From a virus: DNA of 64,000 nucleotides. Location of the stretch: positions 23,611 through 87,610 of the IMG/VR virus record IMGVR_UViG_3300032265_000877, one strand, 5' to 3'. Of this stretch, positions 13,656-64,000 are shown piece by piece. The first letter of the stretch is position 1. Each line of letters begins with the position of its first letter. The notes beneath the pieces are model-generated. The model ran no database searches. It saw only the letters and a program-made list of their open reading frames with translations, and was not told where the DNA came from. Made by a program: the position numbers and the translations under genes.

Positions 13656-13929
13656 TAGGTATCCTGATTACAGTACCTGGGGTTATGTTATTAAAGTCAG
13701 CAATCTGAGGATTAAACTCAGGAATAATCCACCAGTACTGCGGGTTTTTGTAGTACGTCTGGGCTAATTGATCTAAGCGTTCACCCTCTAAGTAGACATG
13801 CTCATAGTAGTTAAGATTGCCTAGTGAAGAGAACTGATAAAACACAATAGGGTTTAAAGGCCCATTAATAGTGGTAGAGACAAAATCAATAGTAGAGTAC
13901 TCGTAGCGAGAGCCTTTATAGATAGCCAT
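13648..13929 (-). CDS. LysM-like baseplate protein (gpX/gp53-like)
   Basis: A 93-residue protein. 'EGERLDQLAQTYYKNPQYWW' followed by 'NPQIADFNNITPGTVIRIP' is a LysM-type fold as in P2 gpX and T4 gp53. Those bind hub or wedge rather than peptidoglycan. Position before the hub gene is typical. Confidence 0.8.
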   Translation of the reverse strand: MAIYKGSRYEYSTIDFVSTTINGPLNPIVFYQFSSLGNLNYYEHVYLEGERLDQLAQTYYKNPQYWWIIPEFNPQIADFNNITPGTVIRIPNV

Positions 13930-29743: not shown

Positions 29744-29925
29744 TATTCACCTGCCTGTGGGATAGAAGAGTTGGATGGGAGTGTGTCGCCATTGGCTACA
29801 TATGCCAAGTACGCCTGATAGTCAGAATTGGCTGGGTCTGTAGGAATCCACCAAACTGTGCCGTCAAAATCTGTTTTTTTAATAACTTTTTCTTGTGATG
29901 CGTTTGTGACTATTTCATAATTCAT
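29743..29925 (-). CDS. Small fibre-cluster protein (DPANSDYQAYLA motif), copy 2
   Basis: 60 residues with 'WWIPTDPANSDYQAYLAYVA'. It is coupled by overlapping stop/start signals to the fibres on both sides. Paralogue of the 50-residue protein at 28625-28777. Confidence 0.65.
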   Translation of the reverse strand: MNYEIVTNASQEKVIKKTDFDGTVWWIPTDPANSDYQAYLAYVANGDTLPSNSSIPQAGE

Positions 29926-35526: not shown

Positions 35527-38500
35527 ATGTCCGTATCGATTTTGATACAGGTGGCTGATGAGTTCTGCGCTCTTAACTTAGGGGTAGCTGAGGTAGCACC
35601 AGTTGAGTTAATTGTAGTTGTACCTGATGTTACAGCTGCAATTGTAATCTGTCCTACGCCAGTTTGGATAATCGTAATTGAAGATCCAATTGGGTAAGCA
35701 ACTGATGCGTTAGTTGGGATTGAGACCGTAAACGCTGAGCCAGAGCTTGCAGTAATAATTGCCGCAGCATCCGCTAGAACAGTTGTGTAAGCACCAGTTT
35801 TAGGATTGATGTTGTAGGAAATTGAAGGCGCTACAATTACTGAGTTGTAGGTGTTTGGTGATTGTAGGCTTAAACCTGATAGGTTTGTTGTCCACTTAAC
35901 ACCTGTTGTTTGTGTTGAGTCGGCTGTGAGGATAGTGTTATTAGCACCAACTGGGAGAGTAGAAAAGGTTCCTGAGCCAGTTCCCGCAATTGTGTCACCC
36001 TTAGCAGTGAAGTTTGCAGAGGAGAGGCCGACCACGCCAGCTACTGAGGTATCAAGCCATAGTACGCCCTGGTTTGCTGGAGCAGTATTTCCTACAGCAA
36101 GTCCCTGTACACCGATCTGACCCTGTAGACCTTGGAGACCTTGTAGCCCCTGCAGTCCTTGAGTGCCCTGAACACCTTGTAGACCTTGTACACCTTGTGC
36201 ACCAAGACCGAGAGTGATGTTCTGTACGACAACGATATCTCCGGCTACTGCCCCAACCGCTAGAACAACAGATGTTCCGTTAGTTGCTGTGTAGTCTGCT
36301 GAACTTAGGCGGACACCATTGAGGAAGACGTTGATATAACCTGGGTTATATGTAACGCTGAAGGTTGTCTGACCAGAGGTGGCGGTGAACTCAGTAGTTG
36401 TGAATACTGGAGCGTTTGTTACGCCACCCTGTACACCCTGAGTACCCTGTACACCCTGGATAGATTGTCCCTGGAGACCCTGGATACCTTGAGTACCTTG
36501 TGTACCTGTTAGACCCTGGGTACCAGTGGTTCCCTGAACACCCTGAAGACCCTGTAGTCCTTGAGTTCCCTGTGTACCCTGCGTACCGGTTGTGCCTTGA
36601 GCACCTTGTGTTCCCTGCACGCCCTGTAGTCCTTGGGTGCCTTGGGTACCTTGTGTACCCTGAACTCCTTGAGTTCCCTGGGTTCCCTGAACTCCTTGAA
36701 TTCCTTGAGTGCCCTGGATGCCCTGTGTACCTTGTGTACCTTGTGCGCCAGTTGTTCCCTGTACGCCAGATGTAGAGAAGGTCCACTGTGAGAATGTTCC
36801 TGAGCCACCAGTGTTAGTTACATTTACAGTAATGCTTGTGTCTGTAGTGATCGCTGTGATCTGACCAAAGACATAGTTGGCAGGAGTTACTGTGTAGGCA
36901 ACTGTTACAAACTGACCGAGCGCAAATGCGCCAGAGTTTGCTACGGCAAAGGTTAGTGAACCAGTACCAATTGCATTAGAGGTGGTTGAGGTTACGCCAG
37001 TGTAAGAACGTCCCTGAATACCTTGGAGGCCTTGAATACCCTGGATTCCTTGTGTTCCCTGAACACCTTGTACTCCCTGGGTTCCCTGAGTACCTTGGAT
37101 ACCAGTGGTTCCCTGTACGCCCTGCGTACCCTGAGTTCCCTGTGGTCCCTGTACACCCTGTAGGCCTTGAACGCCCTGAGTTCCTTGAACTCCCTGGGTT
37201 CCTTGAGGACCTTGAACTCCTTGGAGTCCCTGTAATCCCTGAGTTCCCTGGGTTCCTTGTGTTCCTTGGAGACCCTGTGTTCCCTGAACACCCTGAGTAC
37301 CCTGGGCACCAGTTGTACCCTGGTTACCAACGGCAGAGGTCTGAGAGAAATTGATGTTATCGATACCAATTTTAATGGTGCCGTTTGTATTAGTGCCAAG
37401 CTGGTATTGAATCCATGAGGTACCGACGTTAGTTGAACCAGCAACTGTGTATACATAGTCGCCAGGCTCTACCTGATCTGCAAGATGGTTGTCATAGTCA
37501 GTTGCGCGAGTAAGTTTCCAGGTAGTAGATGCAGAGCCTGCACTTGTAACTGTATAGATACCGTTTTGTTTAGCATCGGCCTGGTTCTTAACAAGTACGC
37601 GAGTATCTGCTGGTAGTGGTCCAGAGTATGTGTAACCGTCAACTACCAAATAACCGTTAGTTGTTGCTTGAAGGTAAGCGCCTACACCAAGACCGTTAGA
37701 GGCATCTGCTGTTCCTGCAGTGTATGAAGGTGAACCAGCAAGCGCGGTTGTTGTTGTAGTGTAAACAGCTGCGTGTGCGTTCTGTGAACCGGAAGCACCC
37801 TGTAGACCCTGTAGGCCTTGTAGGCCTTGAATTCCTTGAATTCCCTGTGTGCCCTGAACACCTTGGACGCCCTGCGTACCTTGGGTACCATCATGTCCTT
37901 GGATACCTTGAATTCCTTGGGTACCTTGAACACCTTGTGTTCCCTGCGTTCCTTGTGTTCCCTGGATACCAGTTGTACCCTGCACACCTTGTGTTCCTTG
38001 AACACCCTGCGTGCCTTGAGTTCCTTGTAGACCAGTTGTTCCTTGTACACCTTGTGTACCTTGAACTCCCTGTAGTCCTTGAACTCCTTGTGTACCCTGT
38101 GAACCAGTTTGACCAGTGGTTCCTTGGATACCTTGCGTTCCTTGAACGCCTTGGATTCCTTGAGTACCCTGATTACCTTGTACGCCTTGAAGACCTTGTG
38201 TGCCTTGTACTCCTTGAGTACCTTGGACACCTTGTGTGCCCTGCACACCTTGAATGCCCTGAATGCCTTGCGTACCCTGAACACCCTGTGTTCCCTGTGT
38301 ACCTTGAGTTCCTTGTACACCCTGGATGCCTTGTATGCCTTGAATACCTTGAGTGCCTTGTACGCCTTGTAGTCCCTGTGTACCTTGTACACCCTGCGTA
38401 CCCTGCACACCTTGTGTTCCCTGTGTTCCTGTTGTTCCCTGAACGCCCTGCGTTCCTTGGATACCTTGCGTGCCTTGTACACCCTGGGTACCTTGAATAC

Positions 38501-38585
38501 CTGTTGTTCCTTGGGTGCCTTGCGCGCCAACAATGGCCGCGATCCACTGACCGGATCCGGTGTCATAATACTTTAATTGGGACAT
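35499..38585 (-). CDS. Long collagen-like tail fibre
   Basis: 1028 residues. The head 'YYDTGSGQWIAAIVGAQG' equals that of the 590-residue fibre. Three long collagen-like arrays of G-x-Q triplets (GTQ, GVQ, GIQ, GLQ; about 20-260, 410-530, 600-720) are separated by folded domains, and a further short run is near 820. One domain has 'VLVKNQADAKQNGIYTVTSA', another 'VFLNGVRLSSADYTATNGTS'. The C-terminal tip ('APKLR'-like 'TPKLRAQNSSATCIKID') is shared with two downstream fibre genes. The Gln-rich Y position is unusual for collagen and typical of phage triple helices. Confidence 0.85.
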   Translation of the reverse strand: MSQLKYYDTGSGQWIAAIVGAQGTQGTTGIQGTQGVQGTQGIQGTQGVQGTTGTQGTQGVQGTQGVQGTQGLQGVQGTQGIQGIQGIQGVQGTQGTQGTQGVQGTQGIQGIQGVQGTQGVQGTQGVQGTQGLQGVQGNQGTQGIQGVQGTQGIQGTTGQTGSQGTQGVQGLQGVQGTQGVQGTTGLQGTQGTQGVQGTQGVQGTTGIQGTQGTQGTQGVQGTQGIQGIQGHDGTQGTQGVQGVQGTQGIQGIQGLQGLQGLQGASGSQNAHAAVYTTTTTALAGSPSYTAGTADASNGLGVGAYLQATTNGYLVVDGYTYSGPLPADTRVLVKNQADAKQNGIYTVTSAGSASTTWKLTRATDYDNHLADQVEPGDYVYTVAGSTNVGTSWIQYQLGTNTNGTIKIGIDNINFSQTSAVGNQGTTGAQGTQGVQGTQGLQGTQGTQGTQGLQGLQGVQGPQGTQGVQGTQGVQGLQGVQGPQGTQGTQGVQGTTGIQGTQGTQGVQGVQGTQGIQGIQGLQGIQGRSYTGVTSTTSNAIGTGSLTFAVANSGAFALGQFVTVAYTVTPANYVFGQITAITTDTSITVNVTNTGGSGTFSQWTFSTSGVQGTTGAQGTQGTQGIQGTQGIQGVQGTQGTQGVQGTQGTQGTQGLQGVQGTQGAQGTTGTQGTQGTQGLQGLQGVQGTTGTQGLTGTQGTQGIQGLQGQSIQGVQGTQGVQGGVTNAPVFTTTEFTATSGQTTFSVTYNPGYINVFLNGVRLSSADYTATNGTSVVLAVGAVAGDIVVVQNITLGLGAQGVQGLQGVQGTQGLQGLQGLQGLQGQIGVQGLAVGNTAPANQGVLWLDTSVAGVVGLSSANFTAKGDTIAGTGSGTFSTLPVGANNTILTADSTQTTGVKWTTNLSGLSLQSPNTYNSVIVAPSISYNINPKTGAYTTVLADAAAIITASSGSAFTVSIPTNASVAYPIGSSITIIQTGVGQITIAAVTSGTTTINSTGATSATPKLRAQNSSATCIKIDTDIWQVVGDIV

Positions 38586-39561: not shown

Positions 39562-40647
39562 CTACCAACTTCCGTAGGTGCCGACGTCAAGGCTTACAGC
39601 TTGAGTCGTAAATACTTGTCCTTTGATATACGTTGTGACTTGGTTAGCGTCTGTCTTTAATGTAGCCGTTAGGTCCCAAAAAGCACGTGTAGGTAAATAC
39701 TGAGTGTCTTTAGGCTGTAGGGTTAAAACTACCTTACTGAGCGTGGACGAAGCTGATGTCACATTTATACCAAAGTTTGCGTATAAGGATGGTGCGTTTG
39801 GATATGTTCTAATCTGAGCAGCCCAGTTGTACAGGGAAGCGTCAAATGGGAAATCAAACTCAATAGAGAAATTGTTACCCTGATAGAGAATAATGTCGTA
39901 GTTCTGTGCGTTAGTTGGAAGAGGGTTACGGCCCGTTAAGTTATTTGCAATATAAACGCGCTCTGGTTTGCGGGCGTCATCAATCTCTTGACCAACATAG
40001 ATAGGTACGTACTTGTTGGTTGTGCGAGATGTGCGGATAAGGGTTCCGACCTCAATCTTCCACAAGCCCACGTTAAGCTGAGCGCAGAGGGTCTTGTATT
40101 GTTCCCAGCGCTGCTGAATGATAGAAGATAGCTGCTGATAACGCTGTGCTCTTGGGATCATAACCCCGTCTGGGGCGGTGATATTGATATCAAATGCAGC
40201 GTCTGTAGCAAGAGCCCAAAGCGCCTCAATGGTTGCCAAAATAGCAATAGGATAAGTTTCAACTGGCGGGATGTTTGCCAGGGTAACCTGGGTGCCATAA
40301 GAGTCAACGCGGTTAAATGTGTGCTCTGTTACGGCGTCATTAATAAAGACGCAGAGCTCTGAGTCTAAAAAGTATCGGTCTTGAACGCCCTGAACCAAGA
40401 TAGTTGCGTTTGCGGCAGGGGCGTTGGCGAAGGTAATAATGCCCGTGTCCTGCTCAACTGTATAACCGTAGGGGTAGCCGATAGGGTTACCGTTCTCAGT
40501 AACCGTAAGATTGACAATCTCAATAGGCTTAATGCCTGTAGGAAAGATAGTAGTTACGCCATCTCCAGTTGCAGTAAAGGTAAAGTTCTTCTGAGGGTCT
40601 CCAAGGTCTAAACGAACCCTAGAGAGTATGTCAGATAGTAAAGCCAC
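39562..40647 (-). CDS. Neck or fibre-attachment structural protein
   Basis: 361 residues. 'LLSDILSRVRLDLGDPQKNF', with 'FINDAVTEHTFNRVDSY' and 'AQRYQQLSSIIQQRWEQYKT', resembles head-tail connector/neck proteins. The C-terminus 'NFSIEFDFPFDASLYNWAAQ' resembles the small beta domain of baseplate-upper/fibre-holder proteins. It probably joins head or neck to fibres. It is the first gene after the terminator at 40713. Confidence 0.6.
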   Translation of the reverse strand: MALLSDILSRVRLDLGDPQKNFTFTATGDGVTTIFPTGIKPIEIVNLTVTENGNPIGYPYGYTVEQDTGIITFANAPAANATILVQGVQDRYFLDSELCVFINDAVTEHTFNRVDSYGTQVTLANIPPVETYPIAILATIEALWALATDAAFDINITAPDGVMIPRAQRYQQLSSIIQQRWEQYKTLCAQLNVGLWKIEVGTLIRTSRTTNKYVPIYVGQEIDDARKPERVYIANNLTGRNPLPTNAQNYDIILYQGNNFSIEFDFPFDASLYNWAAQIRTYPNAPSLYANFGINVTSASSTLSKVVLTLQPKDTQYLPTRAFWDLTATLKTDANQVTTYIKGQVFTTQAVSLDVGTYGSW

Positions 40648-40712
40648 AGAAACTCCCTACACTACGTTAGATCCAATGATGTCGTACTACGGCTAAAAAA
40701 TCTCTGCATACG

Positions 40713-40737
40713 AAAAGAGCGCCCCTATAAGAGGCGC
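40713..40737 (-). terminator. Intrinsic terminator
   Basis: Minus strand: GCGCCTC, TTATA loop, GGGGCGC, then TCTTTTC. Located 20 bp past the stop of the 121-residue gene; separates capsid genes from neck/fibre genes. Confidence 0.8.
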
Positions 40738-40756
40738 CCACTTCGCTAAGTATGTC

Positions 40757-41122
40757 TTAGATAACGCCTGCTAGGTAACCTTTGTCCTTAAGGTGTTGTG
40801 CGACATCCTTTGTTACCTTGTACTTAACTCCAGCTCTAAAGCTGTAGTTATTTCCCTTACCAAAAGTCATGTTTTCAAGATCCTGAACAACGCGGATCTC
40901 AACTGTAGAGTCATCTGAACTTCCAAGAGTTACAGGGTCATCAACAATAACTGTTTGACGGGAAGGCTTTGTGGCATCAATAACTTCAGTCTCTAGTTTA
41001 ATTTGAGCCTGTGCTGTTGCCATAGACATTTCAGCTGCACGATCGTTCATCTCAGCCGCTGCTTGTTCAGCAAGCTGCTCGCGTACACGACCGGTTACAT
41101 CAGTGGGCTTTGTTTTAGCCAT
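40757..41122 (-). CDS. Small head-region protein
   Basis: 121 residues. Helical Ala/Glu/Met-rich N-terminal half (about 10-50), then 'STVEIRVVQDLENMTFGKGN' and 'FRAGVKYKVTKDVAQHLKDK', a pattern seen in small phage head proteins downstream of the capsid gene. It lies between two terminators, so its level can differ from that of the capsid protein. Function not established. Confidence 0.55.
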   Translation of the reverse strand: MAKTKPTDVTGRVREQLAEQAAAEMNDRAAEMSMATAQAQIKLETEVIDATKPSRQTVIVDDPVTLGSSDDSTVEIRVVQDLENMTFGKGNNYSFRAGVKYKVTKDVAQHLKDKGYLAGVI

Positions 41123-41149
41123 TATATTCTCCTAATTAGTATCTCAATG

Positions 41150-41177
41150 AAAATGGTGGGGGCCCGTAGGCCCCCAC
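41150..41177 (-). terminator. Intrinsic terminator after the capsid gene
   Basis: Minus strand: GTGGGGGCC, TACG loop, GGCCCCCAC, then CATTTTC. Strong 9-bp GC stem directly after the major capsid gene; the T-tract is short, so it may be leaky or act as an mRNA 3' stabiliser. Confidence 0.7.
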
Positions 41178-41197
41178 TTTAAGCTATTTAGTTGTAA

Positions 41198-42271
41198 TTA
41201 GTTGGTCTCGATGACAACAACAGACTGGTCAGTGATTAGGCCAAGTCCGAAGATTGAGTACCAAGCAAGTGCATGCTCACGACCGAAGTCAAGAATACCG
41301 CCATCGCGGAGTTCGACTGGGAGTGAGATAGCGTGACCGAATGCGTTATCACCGATCATGATAGCTGCATAACGATCTGATCCACCGTTACCTGTGAGGG
41401 TAGCAGGGGTTGTGTAGCCTCCGCCAGGTGTGACAACTGGGTTAGCAACAGCTGTATCAGTTGTGTATGAAGAACCTGCGCCACCAACGACCTTGAGGAC
41501 CTGGGTGGTTTCGATGAATACTACGTCGTAGAGACGACCGATTTCACCGAGCATGAAGTTACCTGGAGCTGCGTACTTTGTGACCTCGATGAATTCAGGG
41601 TTGTCACGAAGGGTACGGCTCTGGTGTGGGTGAACGAAGCAGACATAAGTCTCGCCCAACCGTGGGATGTTCTTTGTTGCCAAGGTCTCAACTGTGTCCT
41701 TGATAACGTGTGGTGTGAGGTAAGCAGCACCTGTCATTGCTGCGCGATTTGCAGCAAAGGTTCCGTAACCGTACCAGTTGTTAACAGCTGATGAGACTGA
41801 TGAGCGATCTTCGCCGTAAAGGACTGAAGATGCTGCATAGAGTGTGTCGCGTGAGAGCTGATCTAGGTAGATAGCCATGTTACGACCGAGAAGACGTGAG
41901 GCTGATGCCATTACGTCATCAAATGAGGCATTGAGCAAGAGCTCAGATACTGCAAGAGCATAACCATGCTCTGTTACAGTGATTGAGAACTGCTGTGCTG
42001 TGAGAGCGTTAGTCTGCATACGGACACCTTCAACAAGAGGTGAAGCGAATCCGAGGTTGTTGTAACGCATGAAATTGATCTGTAGACCAGGTGCAACACC
42101 GAGTTCAGTCTTTTTGACTGCAAACTGCTCGAAGCGAAGGATAGGCATAGCCTGGAACAAGATTTCCTTGGACCAGATAGTCTGAATCGCCTGAGTTAGC
42201 TGGGTGTTGGTACCTGAGTACGCTGTAGGTGCTGCGGCTAGATTGCCTGTACCTGTGATACCTGATGCCAT
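41198..42271 (-). CDS. Major capsid protein (N4-gp56 family)
   Basis: 357 residues, HK97-fold. 'TQAIQTIWSKEILFQAMPIL', 'LQINFMRYNNLGFASPLVEG', 'ITVTEHGYALAVSELLLNAS', 'YVCFVHPHQSRTLRDNPEFI' and 'LARE'-like 'GREHALAWYSIFG' are the landmarks of the N4-gp56-like capsid family. It forms the icosahedral shell. The scaffold gene precedes it and a strong hairpin terminator follows, as usual for the most abundant virion protein. Confidence 0.92.
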   Translation of the reverse strand: MASGITGTGNLAAAPTAYSGTNTQLTQAIQTIWSKEILFQAMPILRFEQFAVKKTELGVAPGLQINFMRYNNLGFASPLVEGVRMQTNALTAQQFSITVTEHGYALAVSELLLNASFDDVMASASRLLGRNMAIYLDQLSRDTLYAASSVLYGEDRSSVSSAVNNWYGYGTFAANRAAMTGAAYLTPHVIKDTVETLATKNIPRLGETYVCFVHPHQSRTLRDNPEFIEVTKYAAPGNFMLGEIGRLYDVVFIETTQVLKVVGGAGSSYTTDTAVANPVVTPGGGYTTPATLTGNGGSDRYAAIMIGDNAFGHAISLPVELRDGGILDFGREHALAWYSIFGLGLITDQSVVVIETN

Positions 42272-42313
42272 TTGGCTTTAACTCCTTGATAGTAGTTTTT
42301 AATATATTAAGTG

Positions 42314-43096
42314 TTAGCCCAATATTCCGCTGGTCTTACCAAGAGCACGATTGCTCAAGATCTGAGTGCGGACTTTTGCGTATTCATTCATCGGCATTGA
42401 CGCAATATCTGCGGCAGTGAACTGACGTGGTTCCGAATTAGTTTCCAAGGGTCCAACGCCTGGCAAGGTTGCCCTCACGCCCGGCATATCTCTGCGCTGC
42501 TGCTGGATAGCAGACTGTGCAGATTCTAGAATACTGTTAGATCGCTCAACCAAACCTGTAATGCTCTCGTTGATCTCATCTGGGGTATTACCCTGAACGT
42601 AATCAATGAGCTGTGGGATGATATTTTCGCGGTTTTGTTCAACAGCTTGTTGACGGTAAGCCTGCAGTTCTGCAAACTTTCTTTCCTGCTCCAGAAGAGC
42701 GAAGGCCGCTTCGCGTTCTTGACGCTCACGTGCCAACTGCTCTCGCAGTTCATCGGCTGTAGCTTTTGCAAAGTCCTTGGCGTCCAAGTCATTTTCAAGC
42801 TTTGCCTTCTCTTCAGCTGCTTTGGCTTCCGCTTCTGCTGCTTTGCGAGCTGCTTTTTCTTCGCGCTCTTTCTTAAGGAGTGAAACTTCTTCCTTCAATC
42901 GATCGATCTCTGGGTAAAGCTTCTCTTTCTCCTGTGAACGAACCTTTGCAAGATCCTCTTCGGTATAAAACTTCTGAGTTGGTTCATTCTTTCCAGAGGT
43001 AACAGTAGGCGCGTCAACGCCCGACACATTTACTACTGGAGCTGTATTAGCTTCTGCTTCAAAAGCATTAGCCATTAGATCTGCAGTTTCTGACAT
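42314..43096 (-). CDS. Capsid scaffolding protein
   Basis: 260 residues with a long charged coiled coil (about 45-160, rich in Glu/Lys/Ala) and a helical C-terminus ('AADIASMPMNEYAKVRTQIL'). It is immediately upstream of the capsid gene. This is the normal composition and place of a phage scaffold, which is lost from the mature head. No protease domain is visible. Confidence 0.85.
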   Translation of the reverse strand: MSETADLMANAFEAEANTAPVVNVSGVDAPTVTSGKNEPTQKFYTEEDLAKVRSQEKEKLYPEIDRLKEEVSLLKKEREEKAARKAAEAEAKAAEEKAKLENDLDAKDFAKATADELREQLARERQEREAAFALLEQERKFAELQAYRQQAVEQNRENIIPQLIDYVQGNTPDEINESITGLVERSNSILESAQSAIQQQRRDMPGVRATLPGVGPLETNSEPRQFTAADIASMPMNEYAKVRTQILSNRALGKTSGILG

Positions 43097-43211
43097 GCGT
43101 TTATCCTTTTATCCTAGGGGTCGTTTTACGATGTGGGGGCACAAATGACCTAACGTGGTATTACAGTATTTATTTTGACAATAGATGTCTCAATTGTCTG
43201 TATAAATCACT

Positions 43212-44924
43212 TTATTTTTGGTAACCGTCTGGAACTCTGCGCTGTGGCAATTGAGTACCGTAGGCTTCCGTTACTAAACGAGTACGTACCTTCTCGTCGC
43301 CCATTTGGGCGGCAATGGTTGCATCGTCTAGTAATACTGGCTCTGTTGGTGCTGCAGGTGCTGCTGCTCCTGGAGCGCCTGGTGCAGAGGAACCACCAGG
43401 TCCTGTTTGTGCTGGAATAGACCCTGTTAGGGCCATGATGTCCTGCTCAATTTGGGTCTGAATAAGCTTAAGTGCTCCATCAGCCATTGCTTCATCTTGA
43501 AGCTCTTGACGGATCTCTGAGAGCTTCTCAATAGGGAACTCTTCGCCCAGGATGCGCAGTGCGCCTTCCTTAGACTCAAGGCCAAGTGAGAGCATCGACT
43601 GGACTTCGTTGATAGCAATGAGCTTGTCAAGAGGAAGTGGCTGTGGGAAGTGAACATAAGAGCGAAAAGTAATAGGATCATTTACATCTAGCTTGGAGAC
43701 CTGACCCTGCTTTAGTGGAACAGTGCTTGCGTTAGGATCCCAGTTAAGTGCCTCTGGCTCTTTTAAAGCTAGGTTAAGAAGAATTAACTCATTAACGCGC
43801 TCAAGGCCGTGAGCATACTGAACGATCTTCTGGTGATAACGATTCATTAAAGGCTGGAACTGAATAGAAAGCGCAACGCCTGAGGTGTTAGAAATAGGCT
43901 GAGCCTGACCAAGTGCGGTCTCAGGAACACCAATCATTTCGTGCATAGACTTCTTGAGCATTGCAAGGAAGTCCATCGCGCCCTTTAGGCCCTGAGCTCC
44001 GCCTTCAAGGTTCTCTACTCGTGCGTCCTTTGGTAGACCGCCCCATACTTTATTAGCGCCCTTTTCAAGCTGAGAAGCCTTTGCACCAATGATGACGGTT
44101 ACTGGCGCAGCGTGGTAATTAACGATGTCTGCAATATCTGTAGCAGTTTCGTTATACGCGCGGTTAATGTTAATAATGTCATTGCAATCTGAAAGGCCCC
44201 AAGGAGAACCAGAGATGCGGACATTAGCAATGTGAATAACAGGAATTGTGCCAAGAGGATTAGGTCGTGAGTCAATGAGCTCATCGTTAATGTACTCTTC
44301 AATGATGTCATCGGTTAGGATCTCGGTGTAGGTAAAGACCTGACGAGTGCCCTCAAGTGAGGTGCCCCAGAAACGGTACTTAAGCTTAAAACGAACCAAC
44401 CGCTCGCGGTCATGTGGATGAAACTCAGGGAAAGCAAAAGAAGAGTTAAGAGGCAGAACGCGAACTCGGCCAGGGTGTGTGCGTCCAGCAGTGTCTGTAT
44501 AAGACTCTTCATATGCAACTTTGATAAAGCAGTCACCTGACACCGTACCTTGCTGACCAATTTCCCACAGGACTGTGGCCTTATTGTTATCCACTTCCCA
44601 GACGCGCTCTAATAGGTCTGGGACAATCGCCTCAGTCTCTTTAGGGCTACGGAAGTTAACGCCTTTACCAAAGGTAAAGTTAATAATAAAGTCGCTGAAT
44701 GCGCGATAATAGTTAAGAACTAACTGAGTCTCGCCTGTTTGACGGCGGTAAGACCAGTGATGCCCAAGATACATTGCCCAGTTAAGGGAGTAACGGTTTA
44801 GGCGTGGGCCGTGAACTTCAAACTCTTCATCCGCTAGCTCTACTAATCCCAGCGGGGAAATTGAGATGGTTAAATCAGAGGAGGCCGCACGATAACTCGG
44901 TGGAGAGAAATCCATACCGCTCAC
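43212..44924 (-). CDS. Portal protein
   Basis: 570 residues. 'LVLNYYRAFSDFIINFTFGK', 'TRQVFTYTEILTDDIIEEYI', 'IPVIHIANVRISGSPWGLSD' and 'MLKKSMHEMIGVPETALGQA' are typical portal segments. The C-terminal 80 residues are Pro/Ala-rich. It forms the dodecameric DNA gate at the head vertex. It is transcribed from its own conserved promoter at 44950-44979. Confidence 0.9.
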   Translation of the reverse strand: MSGMDFSPPSYRAASSDLTISISPLGLVELADEEFEVHGPRLNRYSLNWAMYLGHHWSYRRQTGETQLVLNYYRAFSDFIINFTFGKGVNFRSPKETEAIVPDLLERVWEVDNNKATVLWEIGQQGTVSGDCFIKVAYEESYTDTAGRTHPGRVRVLPLNSSFAFPEFHPHDRERLVRFKLKYRFWGTSLEGTRQVFTYTEILTDDIIEEYINDELIDSRPNPLGTIPVIHIANVRISGSPWGLSDCNDIININRAYNETATDIADIVNYHAAPVTVIIGAKASQLEKGANKVWGGLPKDARVENLEGGAQGLKGAMDFLAMLKKSMHEMIGVPETALGQAQPISNTSGVALSIQFQPLMNRYHQKIVQYAHGLERVNELILLNLALKEPEALNWDPNASTVPLKQGQVSKLDVNDPITFRSYVHFPQPLPLDKLIAINEVQSMLSLGLESKEGALRILGEEFPIEKLSEIRQELQDEAMADGALKLIQTQIEQDIMALTGSIPAQTGPGGSSAPGAPGAAAPAAPTEPVLLDDATIAAQMGDEKVRTRLVTEAYGTQLPQRRVPDGYQK

Positions 44925-52205: not shown

Positions 52206-52721
52206 ATGCTTAATATCAGAATCAACTTTACAGTTGATGTAAAAAAGGTAATGAGAGTGGTTGGAGCACTTGTACTAGCGTCTACACAGATGTTTACGCC
52301 TGCACATGCTTTACCCGCTCAAACCTCTAAAGAGAAAGTTGTGACAGTTTCTCTTCAGTACATTACTGTGAATACGACACGGACAGGTGCCAAGAAAGCC
52401 TTGGCTAGTGCTTATGTTAAGTACTTTGACGCTCAGACGATTGCCTTCTTAACGGAGTACTCGGCTGGCAAGTCCATGACTGAATGGAAGTGTTTAAACT
52501 CACTTTGGTCTCATGAAAGCCACTTTAACCCTAAAGCTCTTAATATGAGCTCGCACGCCTTTGGTATTGCTCAGTTTCTCCCATCAACGTGGGGGAACTA
52601 CAAGGTACAAAAGACTGCTATGGCGCAACTACAAATTAAATACGGGCTACATTACATCCAAAAAAGATACGGAGACGCATGCAATGCTTGGAAGTTCTGG
52701 CAGGAGCACGGTTGGTATTAA
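52206..52721 (+). CDS. Exported lysozyme-like (SLT) protein
   Basis: 171 residues. Signal peptide: basic start, hydrophobic 'VVGALVLASTQMF', and an AHA cleavage site near residue 35. The catalytic domain has E104 in 'LWSHESHFNP', then 'SHAFGIAQFLPSTWGNY' and 'YIQKRYGDACNAWKFWQEHG', the lytic transglycosylase-type fold of actinobacterial Rpf/SLT proteins. Being exported and in an operon with WhiB, it may act on the host wall early rather than at lysis. The 3' end overlaps whiB by 38 nt. Confidence 0.85.
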   Translation: MLNIRINFTVDVKKVMRVVGALVLASTQMFTPAHALPAQTSKEKVVTVSLQYITVNTTRTGAKKALASAYVKYFDAQTIAFLTEYSAGKSMTEWKCLNSLWSHESHFNPKALNMSSHAFGIAQFLPSTWGNYKVQKTAMAQLQIKYGLHYIQKRYGDACNAWKFWQEHGWY

Positions 52722-52962
52722 AGCACCAGGGTTTGATGGGACACAGATCTGCGCTCAAACAGACCCAAACTTGTTCTTTCCAGACGAATTTAAAGACTCG
52801 CGTCTAGCCTTAAACACGGCCCGCAAACTATGCAGGTCGTGTGAATTCAAGCGTCCCTGCTTAGAGTATGCAATAAATAATCCAGAATTAGTCGGTGTCT
52901 GGGCAGGGACTACTGTAAGTCAAAGGCAAGATATAAGGACGGCTAGAAATAAAGCCGCATAA
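52684..52962 (+). CDS. whiB: WhiB-family iron-sulfur transcription factor
   Basis: 92 residues from the ATG at 52684, chosen because GGAG lies about 10 nt upstream and the WhiB domain starts soon after. Cysteines are C23, C50, C53 and C59 ('DGTQICAQTDPNLFFP', 'CRSCEFKRPCLEYA'), and 'GVWAGTT' is the G[VI]WGG-like turn. WhiB proteins bind a 4Fe-4S cluster and the sigma A subunit, and are actinobacterial and actinophage-specific. Likely reprograms host transcription. Overlaps the lysozyme gene in another frame. Confidence 0.92.
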   Translation: MLGSSGRSTVGIKAPGFDGTQICAQTDPNLFFPDEFKDSRLALNTARKLCRSCEFKRPCLEYAINNPELVGVWAGTTVSQRQDIRTARNKAA

Positions 52963-60532: not shown

Positions 60533-60833
60533 AACCGCACTCTAGCAGCTCTAACACAACGCGCCACTGTCTGCAACTTTGCTAACTCTGCAACCGCGAC
60601 TAATCTATTCGAAAAAAGGCTACTGCCTCCCCCATATATGTCATACCTGTGGATTTCATCTGGCCCCATATGACTGGTCATGACCGGTTAACCCTGGGGG
60701 GTGTCTGATAGTTTCCTGAGAGTCGGCTGATAGTCCATTCTCAGGGAACTCTCAGGGAATAAATTGGGTGTAGTGTCCGTTATACAGGTACAGGGCAAGC
60801 ACAAGGCAAGCCCGAATAACAAGGGAAACGATT
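60533..60833. other. Divergent control region left of the sigma gene
   Basis: 301 bp without a gene. On the left is a pair of GTTGCAGA direct repeats (minus strand). In the middle is the imperfect palindrome ACTGGTCATGACCGGT (60673-60688). On the right are the repeats and promoter P1. A short AGGC-AGTA-GCCT hairpin followed by T6 on the minus strand (near 60613-60632) may be a weak terminator. Confidence 0.6.
60705..60785 (+). promoter_or_regulatory. Promoter P1 of the sigma gene with phased repeats
   Basis: GGAAT (60756-60760), 18 nt, GTT (60779-60781). Upstream are direct CTGA[G/T]AGT copies at 60705, 60716 and 60727, and inverted copies at 60737 and 60748, all 11 bp apart within their sets. 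Predicted start near 60791; AAGGG ribosome site before the ATG at 60834. GGAAT-N18-GTT is the known SigR/SigH promoter form. Confidence 0.75.
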
Positions 60834-61382
60834 ATGAATCAGCAGGAAATGGGCAAGGCTGTATCAGATTATTACGACACTCTCTACTCTGTCGCGTTTA
60901 ATCTCACACGCGATCATCACAAGGCGAATGATCTCGTGCAGACTACGGCAGAGAAAGCGATCAAGGCGAGCGATTCCTTCTCAGAGGGTAATCTCGTTGG
61001 GTGGCTCGTTACGATTCTCCGTAACACTTTCCGTAACGATTACCGCGCGGAAGATCGCATCTCTTTCTCCTCTATTGAGGAACTGATCGAGCAGGGCACT
61101 ACGGCTGAGGATTCACTTCTCGCCAGCGATGAGGATAGCGAGCAGGGTTCAGATTCTCGCTTCTCTAGCGCGAGCGCGGAAAGCGTGTTCCTCTCTGGTG
61201 GCTACTCTCCAGAATTGGCAAGTGCCTTGCAGAATATCTCAAAGGCTCACCGCGACATTCTTCTTCTCAAGGCTGAGGGCTACTCATATGAGGAAATAGC
61301 AGAAATCCTCAAGATCGAAGTTGGCACAGTAATGAGCCGACTAGCCCGCGCTCGTAAGTCAATAAAGGAAGTGCTCGTATGA
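60834..61382 (+). CDS. SigR/SigH-like ECF RNA polymerase sigma factor
   Basis: 182 residues. Region 2 (about 10-80): 'YDTLYSVAFNLTRDHHKAND', then 'LVQTTAEKAI', 'FSEGNLVGWLVTILRNTFRN' and 'DYRA'. This closely follows the SigR/SigH (ECF12) pattern 'F.eGtNlkaWLyrIltNTFiN.YR'. A Ser/Glu-rich linker (about 82-120) is followed by region 4 (about 128-180) with HTH 'YSYEEIAEILKIEVGTVMSR'. It redirects host RNA polymerase. It is preceded by a promoter of its own predicted class, implying autoregulation, and coupled to a tiny membrane protein. Confidence 0.9.
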   Translation: MNQQEMGKAVSDYYDTLYSVAFNLTRDHHKANDLVQTTAEKAIKASDSFSEGNLVGWLVTILRNTFRNDYRAEDRISFSSIEELIEQGTTAEDSLLASDEDSEQGSDSRFSSASAESVFLSGGYSPELASALQNISKAHRDILLLKAEGYSYEEIAEILKIEVGTVMSRLARARKSIKEVLV

Positions 61383-61480
61383 GCCTCCTAAATCCCCTAG
61401 TCTCCGGTCTCCCAATCACAGTAATGTGGTTGGGAGCTGGGATCTGTTTCGCAGTAGCCTACTTTAAGGGAGGAAAATAG
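61379..61480 (+). CDS. Tiny membrane protein coupled to the sigma gene
   Basis: 33 residues with one hydrophobic helix ('LPITVMWLGAGICFAVAYF'). ATGA overlap with the sigma stop gives strict coupling. ECF operons usually continue with an anti-sigma gene; this protein is too short for a classical one but could tether or modulate. That is inference. Confidence 0.6.
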   Translation: MSLLNPLVSGLPITVMWLGAGICFAVAYFKGGK

Positions 61481-61612
61481 ATGGGCAAGATGAAGGAATT
61501 GGCACTTAGGATCGCAGAGTGTGAAAAGTGTGAGGGCGCGGGAATCCTGAGCCACACGCGGGACGATGTGGACTATGAGTGGGCGTGTGAGTGTAATCCA
61601 TACGGACTCTAA
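61481..61612 (+). CDS. Small CxxC/CxC zinc protein of the sigma operon
   Basis: 43 residues. C14-x2-C17 ('AECEKCEGAG') and C36-x-C38 ('WACECNPYG') plus a histidine (H25) may bind zinc. Starts directly after the preceding stop. The SigR partner RsrA is a zinc anti-sigma with HxxxCxxC; here the first histidine of that motif is missing, so the link is only a hypothesis. Confidence 0.55.
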   Translation: MGKMKELALRIAECEKCEGAGILSHTRDDVDYEWACECNPYGL

Positions 61613-61618
61613 GAAGTG

Positions 61619-61645
61619 GGGCGCGGGAAACCGCGCCCTATCTAT
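61619..61645 (+). terminator. Intrinsic terminator of the sigma operon
   Basis: GGGCGCGG (61619-61626), GAAA tetraloop, CCGCGCCC (61631-61638), then TATCTATT. Very stable stem, weak T-tract. A second hairpin (TAGCCCT/AGGGCTA, 61646-61663) follows at once. Confidence 0.75.
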
Positions 61646-61663
61646 TAGCCCTGTCAAGGGCTA

Positions 61664-61721
61664 GGCAATTGGGTTTGGCATAGTCCAACACAAACATATG
61701 AACGGCATTCGGGTAAGGCGT
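61664..61721 (+). repeat. Intergenic repeat module, copy 1
   Basis: Two variants of GGCATTNGGGTNNGGCAT (61664-61681 and 61704-61721) flank AACACAAACAT (61687-61697). The same arrangement recurs at 62750-62801. It lies between a terminator and promoter P2. Confidence 0.7.
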
Positions 61722-61794
61722 AATAAATTGAACCCTATAAAAGACATTAGACAAAAGAGAGCAAAACGTCTAACCCTCAACTAGCACTTCATTC

Positions 61795-61851
61795 CTGAGA
61801 GTTACCTGATAGTTAGCCGAGGGAATAATATGGGGGGTCTATTTGTTCTAT
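61795..61851 (+). promoter_or_regulatory. Promoter P2 with phased repeats
   Basis: GGAAT (61822-61826), 18 nt, GTT (61845-61847). Upstream CTGAGAGT at 61795, CTGATAGT at 61806 and a degenerate copy at 61817, spaced 11 bp. Drives the three-gene operon beginning at 61889 (AAGGGAG ribosome site). Confidence 0.75.
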
Positions 61852-61888
61852 AAGTGTAAGACCACTACTACTACAAGGGAGCAAGACA

Positions 61889-62179
61889 ATGGATAGATTT
61901 TATACAAATAACACCTATGATGTGTCTGACGCGCAGGATTTTAAAGTGCGTGTAGCAGATCCACTAGACGCCGACATATATTTAGGTATGGAGGCTAGTG
62001 GCTGGGCTGGGAGCAATTCAGTATCTTTCTACGCTATCCAGAACCTACGCTTAACGCGGGCTCAGGCTAATCAGATCATTGACGCGCTATCTAACGCTAT
62101 CGGTGAGTATGAGGAGGCTAAGGCTCTCGCAGAGTATGACTCTCAGCGCGACTCTATCTTCGAGGAGGAGTCAGTATGA
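61889..62179 (+). CDS. Unknown protein, first gene of P2 operon
   Basis: 96 residues: 'DFKVRVADPLDADIYLGMEA', 'SFYAIQNLRLTRAQANQIID', then a helical acidic tail. It may be a small alpha/beta domain; I do not recognise it. Coupled by 4-nt overlap to the next gene. Confidence 0.65.
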   Translation: MDRFYTNNTYDVSDAQDFKVRVADPLDADIYLGMEASGWAGSNSVSFYAIQNLRLTRAQANQIIDALSNAIGEYEEAKALAEYDSQRDSIFEEESV

Positions 62180-62415
62180 GCGTCCTAGAGGAAATTCGCT
62201 ACACGCACTCTCTCCAACAGCATAGCGTGACGCGTGAGATGGTGGCGGAGGAATTCGCCACCCTCGAAAGTGACTTCGACAAGGGCTACGCCCTCGATCA
62301 GATTATCGGACACCTAGAGTTAGATAAGAAGCACGGACAAGAGTCGTTCCCACTATGGACGGCGTGGCGTGTAATCCGCGCAATAAATGCAGACTCCTAC
62401 GGACTGAGGGACTAA
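62176..62415 (+). CDS. Unknown helical acidic protein
   Basis: 79 residues, mostly helical: 'SVTREMVAEEFATLESDFDK', 'YALDQIIGHLELDKKHG', 'LWTAWRVIRAINAD'. No motif recognised. Its stop overlaps the next ATG (TAATG). Confidence 0.6.
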   Translation: MSVLEEIRYTHSLQQHSVTREMVAEEFATLESDFDKGYALDQIIGHLELDKKHGQESFPLWTAWRVIRAINADSYGLRD

Positions 62416-62690
62416 TGGGACACAATTTTGCTGAAGACTTGGCTAGTGGGGATCTACGACTCTCACTAGAAGATCAGATCGGTATCCACCTATCGAGTAA
62501 TCATTACCCGCCAGTACCGCAGAGTATGGTCGCGCCTTGCATAGAGGCTATCGAACTCTGTAATGCAGGAGATCAGGGAGAATTGGTAGACCTGCCGGAC
62601 GGAATTCTATGGAAAGGCGAATCACAAGCGCCAGCCTACGCCATAGTAGAGGCTCACCACCTAGACCCTTGGATAGAGTACTTCGAGTAA
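62415..62690 (+). CDS. Conserved actinophage protein (NHYPPVP motif)
   Basis: 91 residues from the ATG at 62415, which overlaps the preceding stop; a longer frame upstream would lie inside the previous gene. 'LSSNHYPPVPQSMVAPCIEA', 'LPDGILWKGES' and 'APAYAIVEAHHLDPWIEY' match a family I recall from actinobacterial phages and plasmids. Function unknown. Confidence 0.7.
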   Translation: MGHNFAEDLASGDLRLSLEDQIGIHLSSNHYPPVPQSMVAPCIEAIELCNAGDQGELVDLPDGILWKGESQAPAYAIVEAHHLDPWIEYFE

Positions 62691-62702
62691 CTATCCAAAA
62701 CG

Positions 62703-62738
62703 ATAAGCGCCCTATTCCCTTGGGGCGCTTATTTATTT
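62703..62738 (+). terminator. Intrinsic terminator of the P2 operon
   Basis: ATAAGCGCCC (62703-62712), 10-nt loop, GGGCGCTTAT (62723-62732), then TTATTT. A 10-bp perfect stem 12 bp past the last stop. Confidence 0.85.
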
Positions 62739-62749
62739 ACTCCCTAAAC

Positions 62750-62801
62750 GGCATTGGGTTAGGCATTCAACACAAACATTGTGGCATTGGGAATAGGGCA
62801 T
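62750..62801 (+). repeat. Intergenic repeat module, copy 2
   Basis: GGCATTGGGTTAGGCAT (62750-62766), AACACAAACAT (62769-62779) and GGCATTGGGAATAGGGCAT (62783-62801). Same order as copy 1 at 61664-61721; between terminator and promoter P3. Confidence 0.7.
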
Positions 62802-62832
62802 AAATCAACAAACGTTCCCTATTTTTTATTCC

Positions 62833-62899
62833 CTGAGAGATTCCTGAGAGTTATCTGAGAGTCGGTGATGGAATAAATAGGGGGGTGTAAGTGTTCAAC
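62833..62899 (+). promoter_or_regulatory. Promoter P3 with phased repeats
   Basis: GGAAT (62870-62874), 18 nt, GTT (62893-62895). CTGAGAG[A/T] copies at 62833, 62844 and 62855, spaced 11 bp. Start predicted near 62905, which rules out an ATG at 62902 and supports the start at 62947. Confidence 0.75.
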
Positions 62900-62946
62900 T
62901 ATTGAGAAGATCGACAGGCGATCACTCTAAAGCAGAAAGGGACAAA

Positions 62947-63141
62947 ATGCTTACAGCACAACAGAATCGAGAGGTAGTTGATCTCGTAAACGCGCTATCG
63001 GGTTCACTTCTAGTGGATCAAGGCTTGATCGTAGAAGCGATCAAGGATAACGACGATATTCACGGGCTAATTTATAAGTGGCTCACACGCGGTGGGGTCG
63101 ATTACTCCACAATAGTTCAAGCATTCGGGGAGGTGTTCTAA
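62947..63141 (+). CDS. Small protein of the P3 operon
   Basis: 64 residues from the ATG at 62947 (AAAGGG ribosome site). 'REVVDLVNALSGSLLVDQGL', 'DDIHGLIYKWLTRGGVDYST'. Alpha-helical; unknown. The upstream in-frame ATG at 62902 would fall at or before the predicted transcription start. Confidence 0.65.
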   Translation: MLTAQQNREVVDLVNALSGSLLVDQGLIVEAIKDNDDIHGLIYKWLTRGGVDYSTIVQAFGEVF

Positions 63142-63335
63142 TGACCACTATTCACGCTGGCGATCACACTACTGATTGCCCTACCTGTAAGGCTAATTGT
63201 TCTTGCGGTACTTGCGAGCAGAATGCGCGCATAAAGGACAATATGGATAGCGATCTAGACTATGCGCTAGAAGCGGGCGACTTCGATATGTTTATGGATA
63301 TATTCGAAGACCGCGACCCATTCGAGTTCCTATGA
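63141..63335 (+). CDS. Small Cys-rich protein
   Basis: 64 residues. 'CPTCKANCSCGTCEQ' holds five cysteines that could bind zinc or an iron-sulfur cluster. The rest is acidic and helical. TAATG overlap with the previous gene, ATGA with the next. Confidence 0.65.
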   Translation: MTTIHAGDHTTDCPTCKANCSCGTCEQNARIKDNMDSDLDYALEAGDFDMFMDIFEDRDPFEFL

Positions 63336-63484
63336 GCCGTAAAGATTATCGAGCACTAGCGGAGGCGCTGAAAGGCGCCTCTGCCACCCCACAGGTAATT
63401 GCAGCAGTCTCACGAGTGCTTGCAGATGATAATCCCCGCTTCGACTGGCAAAAGTTTGCCCTAGCGTGTGGAATAAATGACTAG
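63332..63484 (+). CDS. Conserved small actinophage protein
   Basis: 50 residues: 'MSRKDYRALAEALKG', 'VIAAVSRVLADDNPRFDWQK', 'FALACGIND'. The DNPRFD...F..AC pattern is familiar from many actinophage small proteins. Its 3' end contains promoter P4. Confidence 0.7.
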   Translation: MSRKDYRALAEALKGASATPQVIAAVSRVLADDNPRFDWQKFALACGIND

Positions 63485-63499
63485 TGTTAATTGTTCTAC
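63470..63499 (+). promoter_or_regulatory. Promoter P4 (GGAAT-N18-GTT)
   Basis: GGAAT (63470-63474), 18 nt, GTT (63493-63495), with the same AAAT and TTCTAC context as P2/P3. It lacks the CTGAGAGT repeats and sits partly inside the preceding gene. Predicted start near 63505. Confidence 0.65.
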
Positions 63500-63521
63500 T
63501 AATGAAGGGAGGTGATATAAA

Positions 63522-63887
63522 ATGGAAAATGACAATGTTGAGGCGTTACGCGCCTTAATTATGCAGGTAATACAAGATCTACCAGCACCTGCGCCTGTTC
63601 AGGTTCAGCCCCGCACTTATGTTAAGACTAACGTTCGTGTCCAGAACCTAATGCAGGAAATCGTTGAGAATGATGTAATCTACAAAGAAGCGATAAATAC
63701 ACGCAAGCAGGCAGAAGTTGCTGCCGCAAGTGCTCGCGCTCGTATCGAAGAACTTCTAATAGAGTCACGCAAACTCAAAGTCCCACAAGCCTTAATTGGA
63801 GAAGCCTTAGGTATCTCTAGTGGCTCTGTGTCTAGCCGTATGGCAACCGCGCGCAAGTCTGTGCGTAACCGCAAGAAAACTAAATAA
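63522..63887 (+). CDS. HTH protein, sigma-region-4-like C-terminus
   Basis: 121 residues. A strong ribosome site (GGGAGGTGAT) precedes the ATG. The middle is an Ala/Glu/Arg-rich helix. The C-terminus 'LIGEALGISSGSVSSRMATA', then RKSVRNR, resembles the region 4 helix-turn-helix of sigma factors, including that at 60834. Without region 2 it would not initiate transcription itself; it may be a DNA-binding regulator of the same system. Confidence 0.65.
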   Translation: MENDNVEALRALIMQVIQDLPAPAPVQVQPRTYVKTNVRVQNLMQEIVENDVIYKEAINTRKQAEVAAASARARIEELLIESRKLKVPQALIGEALGISSGSVSSRMATARKSVRNRKKTK

Positions 63888-64000
63888 CGACCAGCCAAGT
63901 TTCTGGGGCTATCCGTAGCAAGCGTGCCTGTCCACGCCAAGAGCCGTAATTGCCCCAGTAAAGCGGAAAGGTATGGTCACCACCCGCTAAGTAGCCCCGC
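63880..64000 (-). CDS. C-terminal end of a minus-strand gene cut by window edge
   Basis: A 39-codon open frame runs in from the right edge and ends at 63880, overlapping the convergent gene by 8 bp. The text looks like protein ('GGDHTFPLYWGNYGSWRGQA', then 'RLLRIAPETWLVVI'), with many aromatic and Gly residues. Family not recognised. An alternative is RNA structure: CTGGGGC/GCCCCAG and GCGTG/CACGC can pair. Confidence 0.45.
   Translation of the reverse strand, partial: RGYLAGGDHTFPLYWGNYGSWRGQARLLRIAPETWLVVI

What the first reader, a model, noticed from the sequence alone, without database searches (positions are those of the whole stretch)
60705..63499. Phage-encoded SigR-like sigma factor with its own four-promoter regulon
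Four places on the plus strand share GGAAT, exactly 18 nt, GTT: 60756, 61822, 62870 and 63470. Three stand before operons of unknown small genes, and one before the sigma gene itself. GGAAT-N18-GTT is the known promoter form of actinobacterial SigR/SigH. The encoded sigma (60834-61382) carries region-2 text close to that group ('EGNLVGWLVTILRNTFRN'). Sequence of the factor and of the sites thus agree independently. This suggests a positive feedback sigma cascade in the phage, perhaps also tapping or mimicking the host thiol-stress regulon.
Basis: partly seen in the sequence, partly recalled or inferred. Interest (0 to 1): 0.88.

Follow-up and report, generated by a model that had tools for sequence, protein, structure and literature searches.

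The report
Phage sigma factor with own regulon
A virus that appears to infect actinobacteria seems to carry its own version of a bacterial stress switch, with matching promoters in front of the switch gene and three other small-gene operons, and a related virus with a very different copy of the switch keeps such promoters in the same places.

Summary
Four plus-strand GGAAT-N18-GTT sites (60756, 61822, 62870, 63470) stand 26-52 nt before start codons; 5000 shuffles of 60.6-64 kb give mean 0.045, maximum 2. ORF 60834-61382 is a two-domain ECF sigma closest to actinobacterial SigR/SigH, but below the curated cut-off (100 vs 251 bits) and beside, not inside, that clade. Strongest new evidence: a 95.8-kb phage (G316; TerL 93% identical, sigma only 33%) keeps exact N18 sites before the first gene of all four window operons and has 8 plus-strand sites in 35.5-45.4 kb. 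Among 80 loci sharing gene 62415, the 2 with this sigma hold 10 of 17 plus-strand sites in 2.4% of the DNA. Best reading: a SigR-like phage sigma with a conserved, autoregulated regulon, probably co-controlled by an unknown box-binding protein. Sigma action, feedback and box function are inferred.

The parts
60834..61382 (+). ECF sigma factor gene, 182 aa, SigR/SigH-like (regions 2 and 4)
   Evidence: PF04542 9.1e-14 and PF08281 1.3e-12; best NCBIfam TIGR02947 100.4 bits, cut-off 251.55; best PDB sequence matches are a chimeric SigH chain and M. tuberculosis SigH; Foldseek; trees
60756..60781 (+). P1, GGAAT-N18-GTT, 52 nt before the sigma ATG (autoregulatory)
   Evidence: counterpart before the G316 sigma; identical in L010
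61822..61847 (+). P2, GGAAT-N18-GTT, 41 nt before the 61889 operon
   Evidence: kept in L010 with one spacer change
62870..62895 (+). P3, GGAAT-N18-GTT, 51 nt before the 62947 operon
   Evidence: L010 ends before this point
63470..63495 (+). P4, GGAAT-N18-GTT, 26 nt before the 63522 gene, inside the 3' end of 63332-63484
   Evidence: counterpart 22 nt before an ATG at the orthologue in G316; L010 ends before this point
62807..62832 (-). Possible fifth (divergent) site GGAATAAAAAATAGGGAACGTTTGTT; no minus-strand ORF of 40 aa or more just downstream; identical in L010
60705..60755 (.). CTGAKAG boxes before P1: three direct (51, 40, 29 nt before GGAAT) and two on the other strand in the same 11-nt register (18 and 7 nt; one of the two with a mismatch)
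   Evidence: sequence
61795..61812 (+). Two CTGAKAG boxes before P2 (27 and 16 nt before GGAAT)
62833..62861 (+). Three CTGAKAG boxes before P3 (37, 26, 15 nt before GGAAT); on the minus strand they abut the fifth site
61379..61480 (+). 33-aa peptide, single-TM-like by eye, ATGA overlap with the sigma stop; counterpart read in L010 and found in G316 (70% over 23 aa)
61481..61612 (+). 43-aa cysteine-rich ORF (CxxC...CxC), not found in L010's list of ORFs of 40 aa or more nor in G316 30-45 kb
61889..62179 (+). 96-aa gene of unknown function, first of the P2 operon; 32% to G316 homologue
62176..62415 (+). 79-aa gene of unknown function; 57% to G316 homologue
62415..62690 (+).
62702..62733 (+). 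Terminator-like hairpin after the P2 operon
   Evidence: 1 found; shuffles of the 4.2-kb region mean 3.6
62947..63141 (+). 64-aa gene of unknown function, first of the P3 operon; 45% to G316 homologue
63141..63335 (+). 64-aa gene; N-terminal HxxxCxxC motif is absent from the G316 homologue
63332..63484 (+). 50-aa gene of unknown function; 58% to a G316 homologue that lies elsewhere in that block
63522..63887 (+). 121-aa helical protein with C-terminal HTH resembling sigma region 4; possible box-binding regulator (speculation)
   Evidence: PF04545 3.6e-4, below gathering score; single-sequence model mean pLDDT 78, pTM 0.42; 53% to G316 homologue over 77 aa

Best explanation
The phage encodes an ECF sigma factor related (sister) to the actinobacterial SigR/SigH (ECF12) group. 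Bound to host core RNA polymerase it would read GGAAT-N18-GTT promoters on the plus strand of one gene block at the right end of this contig: one before its own gene (positive autoregulation) and at least three before operons of small proteins of unknown function (probably eight or more promoters in the related phage G316, including one before a MoxR-type AAA gene). Three of the four window promoters carry 11-nt-phased CTGAKAG heptamers next to the -35. Most likely a second, unidentified DNA-binding protein sits there and gates or boosts these promoters. Shown: the sequences, their positions, their recurrence before orthologous genes and their co-occurrence with the sigma. Inferred: that this sigma reads these sites, the feedback, the timing, and the role of the boxes.
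For: Sites far above chance with an exact spacer. Sigma has both domains and is closest to SigR/SigH by profile, PDB sequence and tree, a group whose published consensus is GGAAT-N18(-19)-GTT (PMC9205884, PMC10012870, PMC2375139 passages). 58 of 79 cellular SigR loci with at least 200 nt upstream have GGAAT-N17-19-GTT there (51 with N18), against 0 for the backward pattern. G316, sigma 33% identical, has exact sites before the first gene of the counterparts of all four window operons, with spacers diverged; its 30-45 kb plus strand has 8 sites against a shuffle mean of 0.23, maximum 3. In 80 loci sharing gene 62415, the 2 with the sigma hold 10 of 17 plus-strand sites in 24.7 of 1035 kb (binomial p about 1e-12). 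Sigma M167 lies in GTVMSRL; PMC10012870 links SigH Met170 to positions -31/-30 and calls GGAATAA (PtrxB1) a typical strong SigH-only promoter (that M167 is the same residue is my inference). The consensus scan finds no sigma-70-like plus-strand promoter in 59.8-64 kb (2 found, both minus).
Against: No transcription data. The sigma is far below the TIGR02947 cut-off. The G316 sigma has TATVGTRL in place of GTVMSRL yet its phage keeps GGAATAA, so M167 alone does not explain specificity. Only two diverged sigma-bearing lineages support the co-occurrence (window/L009/L010, and G316). Of G316's 11 sites, one plus site (30381) has no ORF start within 160 nt in my scan and two are on the minus strand; its backward control gives 2. 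L013 has one box-plus-promoter but no sigma was found in its 33.5-kb fragment. One equally good core site at 13721 has no evident target. None of nine other viral ECF loci (L067-L075) has such a site just upstream of its sigma; L069 has one N19 match 2.9 kb away on the other strand.
Confidence: 0.87

Rival explanations
1. The host's own SigR reads these promoters: the phage taps the host thiol-stress regulon and its sigma has other targets.
For: In the candidate host order 41 of 41 genomes examined encode SigR over the cut-off, and some have closely similar sites before sigR (L209 GGAATAAATTCGGTTTTTTCAGTGTT, L220 GGAATAAAGTGAGACGGCTCTTTGTT; 11 of 30 loci have the pattern). Cross-reading by host SigR is likely as a side activity.
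Against: The sites follow the phage sigma: 78 related loci without it hold 7 plus-strand sites in 1010 kb; a site lies before the sigma gene itself in window, L010 and G316.
Confidence: 0.08
2. The sites are copies of a mobile or recombinational repeat (CTGAKAG array plus GGAATAA), not promoters.
For: Upstream regions share a 46-nt repeat family; box arrays occur in other phages without the promoter motif.
Against: P4 and its G316 counterpart have no boxes, and their spacers and flanks differ from the rest, yet the core is there; each of the four window plus sites lies 26-52 nt before an ATG.
Confidence: 0.03
3. The CTGAKAG boxes are the main control (host or phage activator or repressor sites) and the sigma is a minor accessory. 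Not exclusive of the best explanation.
For: Boxes are widespread: 46 stretches with three boxes in IMG/VR against 6 for the backward pattern; 11 of 12 box-bearing records searched have no sigma region-2 match, though 10 of 12 have a region-4 match, over the cut-off in one; records may be fragments.
Against: P4 has no boxes in either phage; in the 80-locus set boxes occur only in the two loci with the sigma.
Confidence: 0.1

Closest known systems
SigR (Streptomyces) / SigH (Mycobacterium, Corynebacterium), group ECF12, TIGR02947
   Same: Two-domain ECF sigma; GTVMSRL in region 4; GGAAT-N18-GTT promoters; in many species a site of that form before its own gene (58 of 79 loci)
   Different: 36-44% identity to the ten cellular relatives aligned, about 100 of 251 bits, no RsrA-type zinc anti-sigma beside it, on a phage, longer linker between domains, CTGAKAG boxes at promoters
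Phage sigma factors that switch viral gene classes (T4 gp55, SPO1 gp28/gp33-34; recalled, not tested)
   Same: Phage factor redirecting host polymerase to phage promoters
   Different: As recalled, those are not ECF12-like; here the promoter form equals that of a host stress sigma
ECF sigma genes in Sinorhizobium phage phiM9, Rhizobium phage RL38J1, Microcystis phage MaAM05
   Same: ECF sigma genes in phage genomes
   Different: 27-33% identical; the record of phiM9's length (L069) has no GGAAT-N18-GTT site within 4 kb of its sigma; the other two were not examined for sites
'Ca. Planktophila' phages E7 and F5 (PMC10202952, passages)
   Same: Actinophages of freshwater bacteria with whiB and a sigma-70 factor; a relative, L017 (TerL 78% identical), carries the same kind of boxes
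   Different: Their sigma is reported as TIGR02943; E7 and F5 themselves have no 11-nt-spaced boxes; 39-kb genomes whose terminase matches other phages than the window's does

Membership tests
ECF12 (SigR/SigH, TIGR02947) | Score above the curated family cut-off | tested here: not met
   100.4 bits, cut-off 251.55; G316 and L010 107.7 and 97.1
ECF12 (SigR/SigH, TIGR02947) | Closest to, or nested in, the SigR clade in a tree with other ECFs | tested here: inconclusive
   Second tree: group of window, L010, G316 and L067 (94/74) sister to a 27-row clade (26 SigR-set rows and one Streptomyces ECF), joined 98/86; first tree: SigR side of a 99/99 branch, 17 of 18 other Streptomyces ECFs on the other side. 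Long branches; the cellular set was gathered with a query that included M. tuberculosis SigH
ECF12 (SigR/SigH, TIGR02947) | Promoters GGAAT-N18(-19)-GTT | tested here: met
   By sequence only: four window sites, 8 plus sites in 35.5-45.4 kb of G316; transcription not testable here
ECF12 (SigR/SigH, TIGR02947) | Zinc anti-sigma (RsrA/RshA, HxxxCxxC) encoded next to it | tested here: not met
   None adjacent. Of 5 open frames with HxxxCxxC in the window only 63141-63335 is a likely gene; it has no anti-sigma Pfam match at E<=1 and the motif is absent from the G316 homologue. 75 of 80 cellular relatives show the motif downstream
ECF12 (SigR/SigH, TIGR02947) | Met in GTVMSRL of region 4 (my choice of marker) | tested here: met
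   Window, L010 and 79 of 80 cellular relatives; not in G316
ECF sigma factors (general) | Regions 2 and 4 only, joined by a flexible linker | tested here: met
   residues 75-120 have pLDDT under 50 in the model
OmpR/PhoB- or SARP-type box arrays (layout recalled) | Heptamers with 11-nt period just upstream of the -35 | tested here: met
   the binding protein is unknown, so membership is not claimed

The most novel reading that the evidence does not exclude
A two-key viral regulon: a phage ECF sigma whose promoters are additionally gated by a phage-encoded regulator bound to 11-nt-phased CTGAKAG boxes fixed at 15-16 (or 18/7) nt before the -35. The same box code is used at other promoters by unrelated actinophages, so it would be a viral regulatory language rather than a host one.
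Probability: 0.35. Interest if true: 0.78.

Novelty: new variant of a known kind. Interest (0 to 1): 0.62.

Why it matters
If true, a phage of actinobacteria (probably the abundant, hard-to-grow freshwater ones) shares the promoter specificity of a host stress sigma and uses it as a private, self-amplifying gene switch without an adjacent RsrA-type redox anti-sigma. It gives a concrete regulon of unknown small genes to test, predicts cross-talk with host SigR, and reveals a box code shared among different phages whose three-box form was not found in 296 genomes of a candidate host order.

Tried and rejected
Host-only SigR model: rejected as the main cause because sites follow the phage sigma in 80 loci.

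CTGAKAG boxes as a host chromosomal element: three-box arrays in 0 of 296 genomes of the order of G007; double boxes in 0 of 8 genomes and in 7 of 296. For the 7 of 296 the controls disagree: the backward pattern has 0 in every row listed, while a uniform-base estimate of my own (no call) is about ten; two of the seven share one sequence. So a host role is disfavoured, not excluded, and the true host is not known.

RsrA-like anti-sigma in 63141-63335: motif present, but no family match and not conserved in G316.

CRP/GlxR-type sites (TGTGA-N6-TCACA): found in 24 of 242 loci, many with boxes; none in the window even with one mismatch.

Relatives of 63522 by direct scan: none; its orthologue was seen only in G316. 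PADLOC: nothing for seven small proteins. Gene 62415 has no match in the named phage collection.

Literature: nine searches of open-licence PMC papers; among the papers listed I noticed none describing a phage ECF/SigR-like sigma with its own regulon or the heptamer array. Seen as passages: PMC10012870, PMC9205884, PMC2375139, PMC9429907, PMC10202952, PMC6802176; all others only as listings.

A first count of 54 of 80 cellular SigR loci with an upstream site used one fixed start for all loci; the corrected count is 58 of 79 (one locus dropped for having under 200 nt upstream).
Full report
What is there. The window is bases 23611-87610 of an 87,610-base IMG/VR virus record, so its right end is the contig end. 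Most large genes of the window, terminase and structural genes among them, run on the minus strand; the block from 60.7 kb on runs plus. TerL is 52-53% identical to Streptomyces phages BRock, GiJojo and relatives, and the window has a WhiB gene at 52561-52962 (PF02467, 2.1e-15), so I take it for an actinophage. Its close relatives L009 and L010 carry the sigma at 87%.

The sites. GGAAT-N18-GTT occurs at + 60756, 61822, 62870 and 63470 and at - 62832. On the plus strand of 60601-64000, 4 were seen against a shuffle mean of 0.045. Only an 18-nt spacer is enriched in this block. Each of the four plus sites stands 26-52 nt before an ATG. A consensus scan finds no sigma-70-like plus-strand promoter in 59.8-64 kb (2 found, both minus; shuffle mean 5.1). 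Three further matches lie elsewhere; 13721 has the full GGAATAA core and no evident target.

The factor. ORF 60834-61382 has sigma regions 2 and 4. Its best profile is TIGR02947 SigH_actino at 100.4 bits, well under the 251.55 cut-off. Its best PDB sequence matches are a chimeric SigH chain and M. tuberculosis SigH. Foldseek on the predicted model (mean pLDDT 69, pTM 0.42, linker 75-120 under 50) lists mycobacterial SigE and SigH complexes first, with whole-chain TM-scores only 0.32-0.41, and single domains fit better: SigR N-terminal fragment 1h3l target TM 0.85, SigR region 4 5fgm 0.76. Of the ECFs of one Streptomyces genome (30 loci fetched of 43 matches), SigR is nearest, 95.5 against 74.3 bits. 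In a 48-row tree, window, L010, G316 and the virus L067 form a group (94/74) sister to the SigR set, joined at 98/86; an earlier 53-row tree put window and L010 on the SigR side of a 99/99 branch, with 17 of 18 other Streptomyces ECFs on the other side. For the second tree six rows of the first, mostly long branches, were removed and G316 added. Branches are long, and the cellular set was gathered with a query holding M. tuberculosis SigH.

The decisive comparison. G316 (IMGVR_UViG_3300025418_000694, 95.8 kb) was found through its CTGAKAG boxes (L027); the sigma scan had missed it. Its TerL is 93% identical to the window's, but its sigma only 33%. It has 11 GGAAT-N18-GTT sites, 9 plus and 2 minus, against 2 for the backward control; 8 of the plus sites lie between 35549 and 45384 and none beyond. 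In order: 35549 before the sigma and the small peptide; 36371 before homologues of 61889 (32%), 62176 (57%), 62415 (70%); 37494 before those of 62947 (45%) and 63141 (56% over its C-terminal part); 38096 before that of 63522 (53%); then 38746 (next listed ORF 121 nt on; the 63332 homologue lies 600 nt on); 40127 before a 459-aa MoxR-type AAA gene with a 652-aa gene behind it (VWA-like by my reading); 44078 before a 101-aa ORF; and 45384, whose downstream was not examined. Plus site 30381 has no ORF start within 160 nt in the scan. So all four window promoters have counterparts before orthologous genes. In the 12 sites tabulated (4 window, 8 G316; 30381 and all minus sites left out) GGAAT and GTT are exact by selection; the base after GGAAT is A in 12 of 12 and the next A in 11 of 12, while most of the spacer varies.

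Co-occurrence. Gene 62415 has at least 584 relatives in IMG/VR; the best 80 loci were kept. Two of the 80 (L258 = L010's phage, L259 = G316) encode this sigma (E about 1e-50); two more have weak partial hits (E 4e-4 and 7e-4) that I did not count. The two hold 10 plus-strand sites in 24.7 kb; the other 78 hold 7 in 1010 kb. On the minus strand the two hold 3 and the rest 11; the backward control gives 14 plus and 9 minus in the 76 loci without any sigma hit and 0 plus and 2 minus in the other four. Independent sigma lineages are only two.

Host link. In the order of G007 (genomes of 0.6-2.2 Mb), 41 of 41 genomes examined have SigR over the cut-off. Of 30 such loci read, 30 have an HxxxCxxC reading downstream and 11 have GGAAT-N18-GTT within about 450 nt upstream. 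That this order hosts the phage is a guess from G+C content and WhiB. L017, whose TerL is 78% identical to that of the cultured Planktophila phages E7/F5 (records OX376640/OX376641, named LanE43-AprE7 and -AprF5), carries boxes; E7 and F5 themselves do not.

The boxes. CTGAKAG-N4-CTGAKAG (up to one mismatch) has 6 matches in the window, all before P1, P2 and P3 (expected 0.05), and none in the rest of the record. In six forward arrays (window P2, P3; G316 35549, 36371, 37494, 38746) the last box starts 15-16 nt before GGAAT; counting variants such as CTGGAAA and CTGTGAA there is my choice. P1 and L013 use a register of 18 nt. P4 and its counterpart have none, nor do 40127 and 44078 within 60 nt. 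In the 80-locus set 7 arrays occur, all in the two sigma loci; five stand directly before a GGAAT site, one is the inverted set at P1 and one has no such site behind it. Three-box arrays occur in 46 IMG/VR stretches against 6 for the backward pattern; some of the 46 are re-finds of L009/L010, and a few look like simple tandem repeats. In 11 of the 48 rows a 622-aa ORF neighbours the array (a terminase in L017; in the others by length alone); four of the array-side genes scanned are amidoligase-like. What binds the boxes is unknown. Host genomes: three-box arrays 0 of 296, double boxes 7 of 296 with 0 for the backward control, so a host role is not excluded.

Mechanism and limits. The best reading is phage sigma plus host core, self-amplifying, feeding a block of small proteins, with a box-binding co-regulator at some promoters. 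The 33-aa peptide overlapping the sigma stop has counterparts behind the sigma in L010 and G316 and might be a membrane anti-sigma or anchor; this is speculation. No transcript, binding or activity was measured. Met167 is a plausible -35 contact by analogy with SigH Met170, but G316 lacks it.

Noticed in passing
L021, L037, L041, L053, L063 and others; L241 22684-22776: Perfect CRP/GlxR-type palindromes TGTGA-N6-TCACA occur in 24 of 242 loci, in several beside or between CTGAKAG arrays, and before the terminase of cultured phage F5; possibly use of a host CRP-type regulator. None in the window.
   Followed up: partly
window 62807-62832 (-): A minus-strand copy of the promoter abuts the box array before P3 and is identical in L010; no ORF of 40 aa or more follows it, so a short RNA or divergent transcript is possible.
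   Followed up: partly
window 61379-61480: 33-aa single-TM-like peptide overlapping the sigma stop (ATGA), with counterparts in L010 and G316.
   Followed up: partly
window 52561-52962: WhiB-family ORF on the plus strand, where most large ORFs are on the minus strand.
   Followed up: no
window 35499-38585 and 29925-31697: Long collagen-like GVQGTQG repeat proteins.
   Followed up: no
L257 10213-13552 (G316 40212-43551): A 459-aa MoxR-type AAA gene and a 652-aa VWA-like gene (second by eye) follow a sigma-type promoter in G316; their counterparts, if any, may lie beyond the window's contig end.
   Followed up: partly
G316 versus window: TerL 93% identical but sigma only 33% and its neighbours 32-70%: the sigma block evolves much faster or was exchanged as a module.
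   Followed up: no
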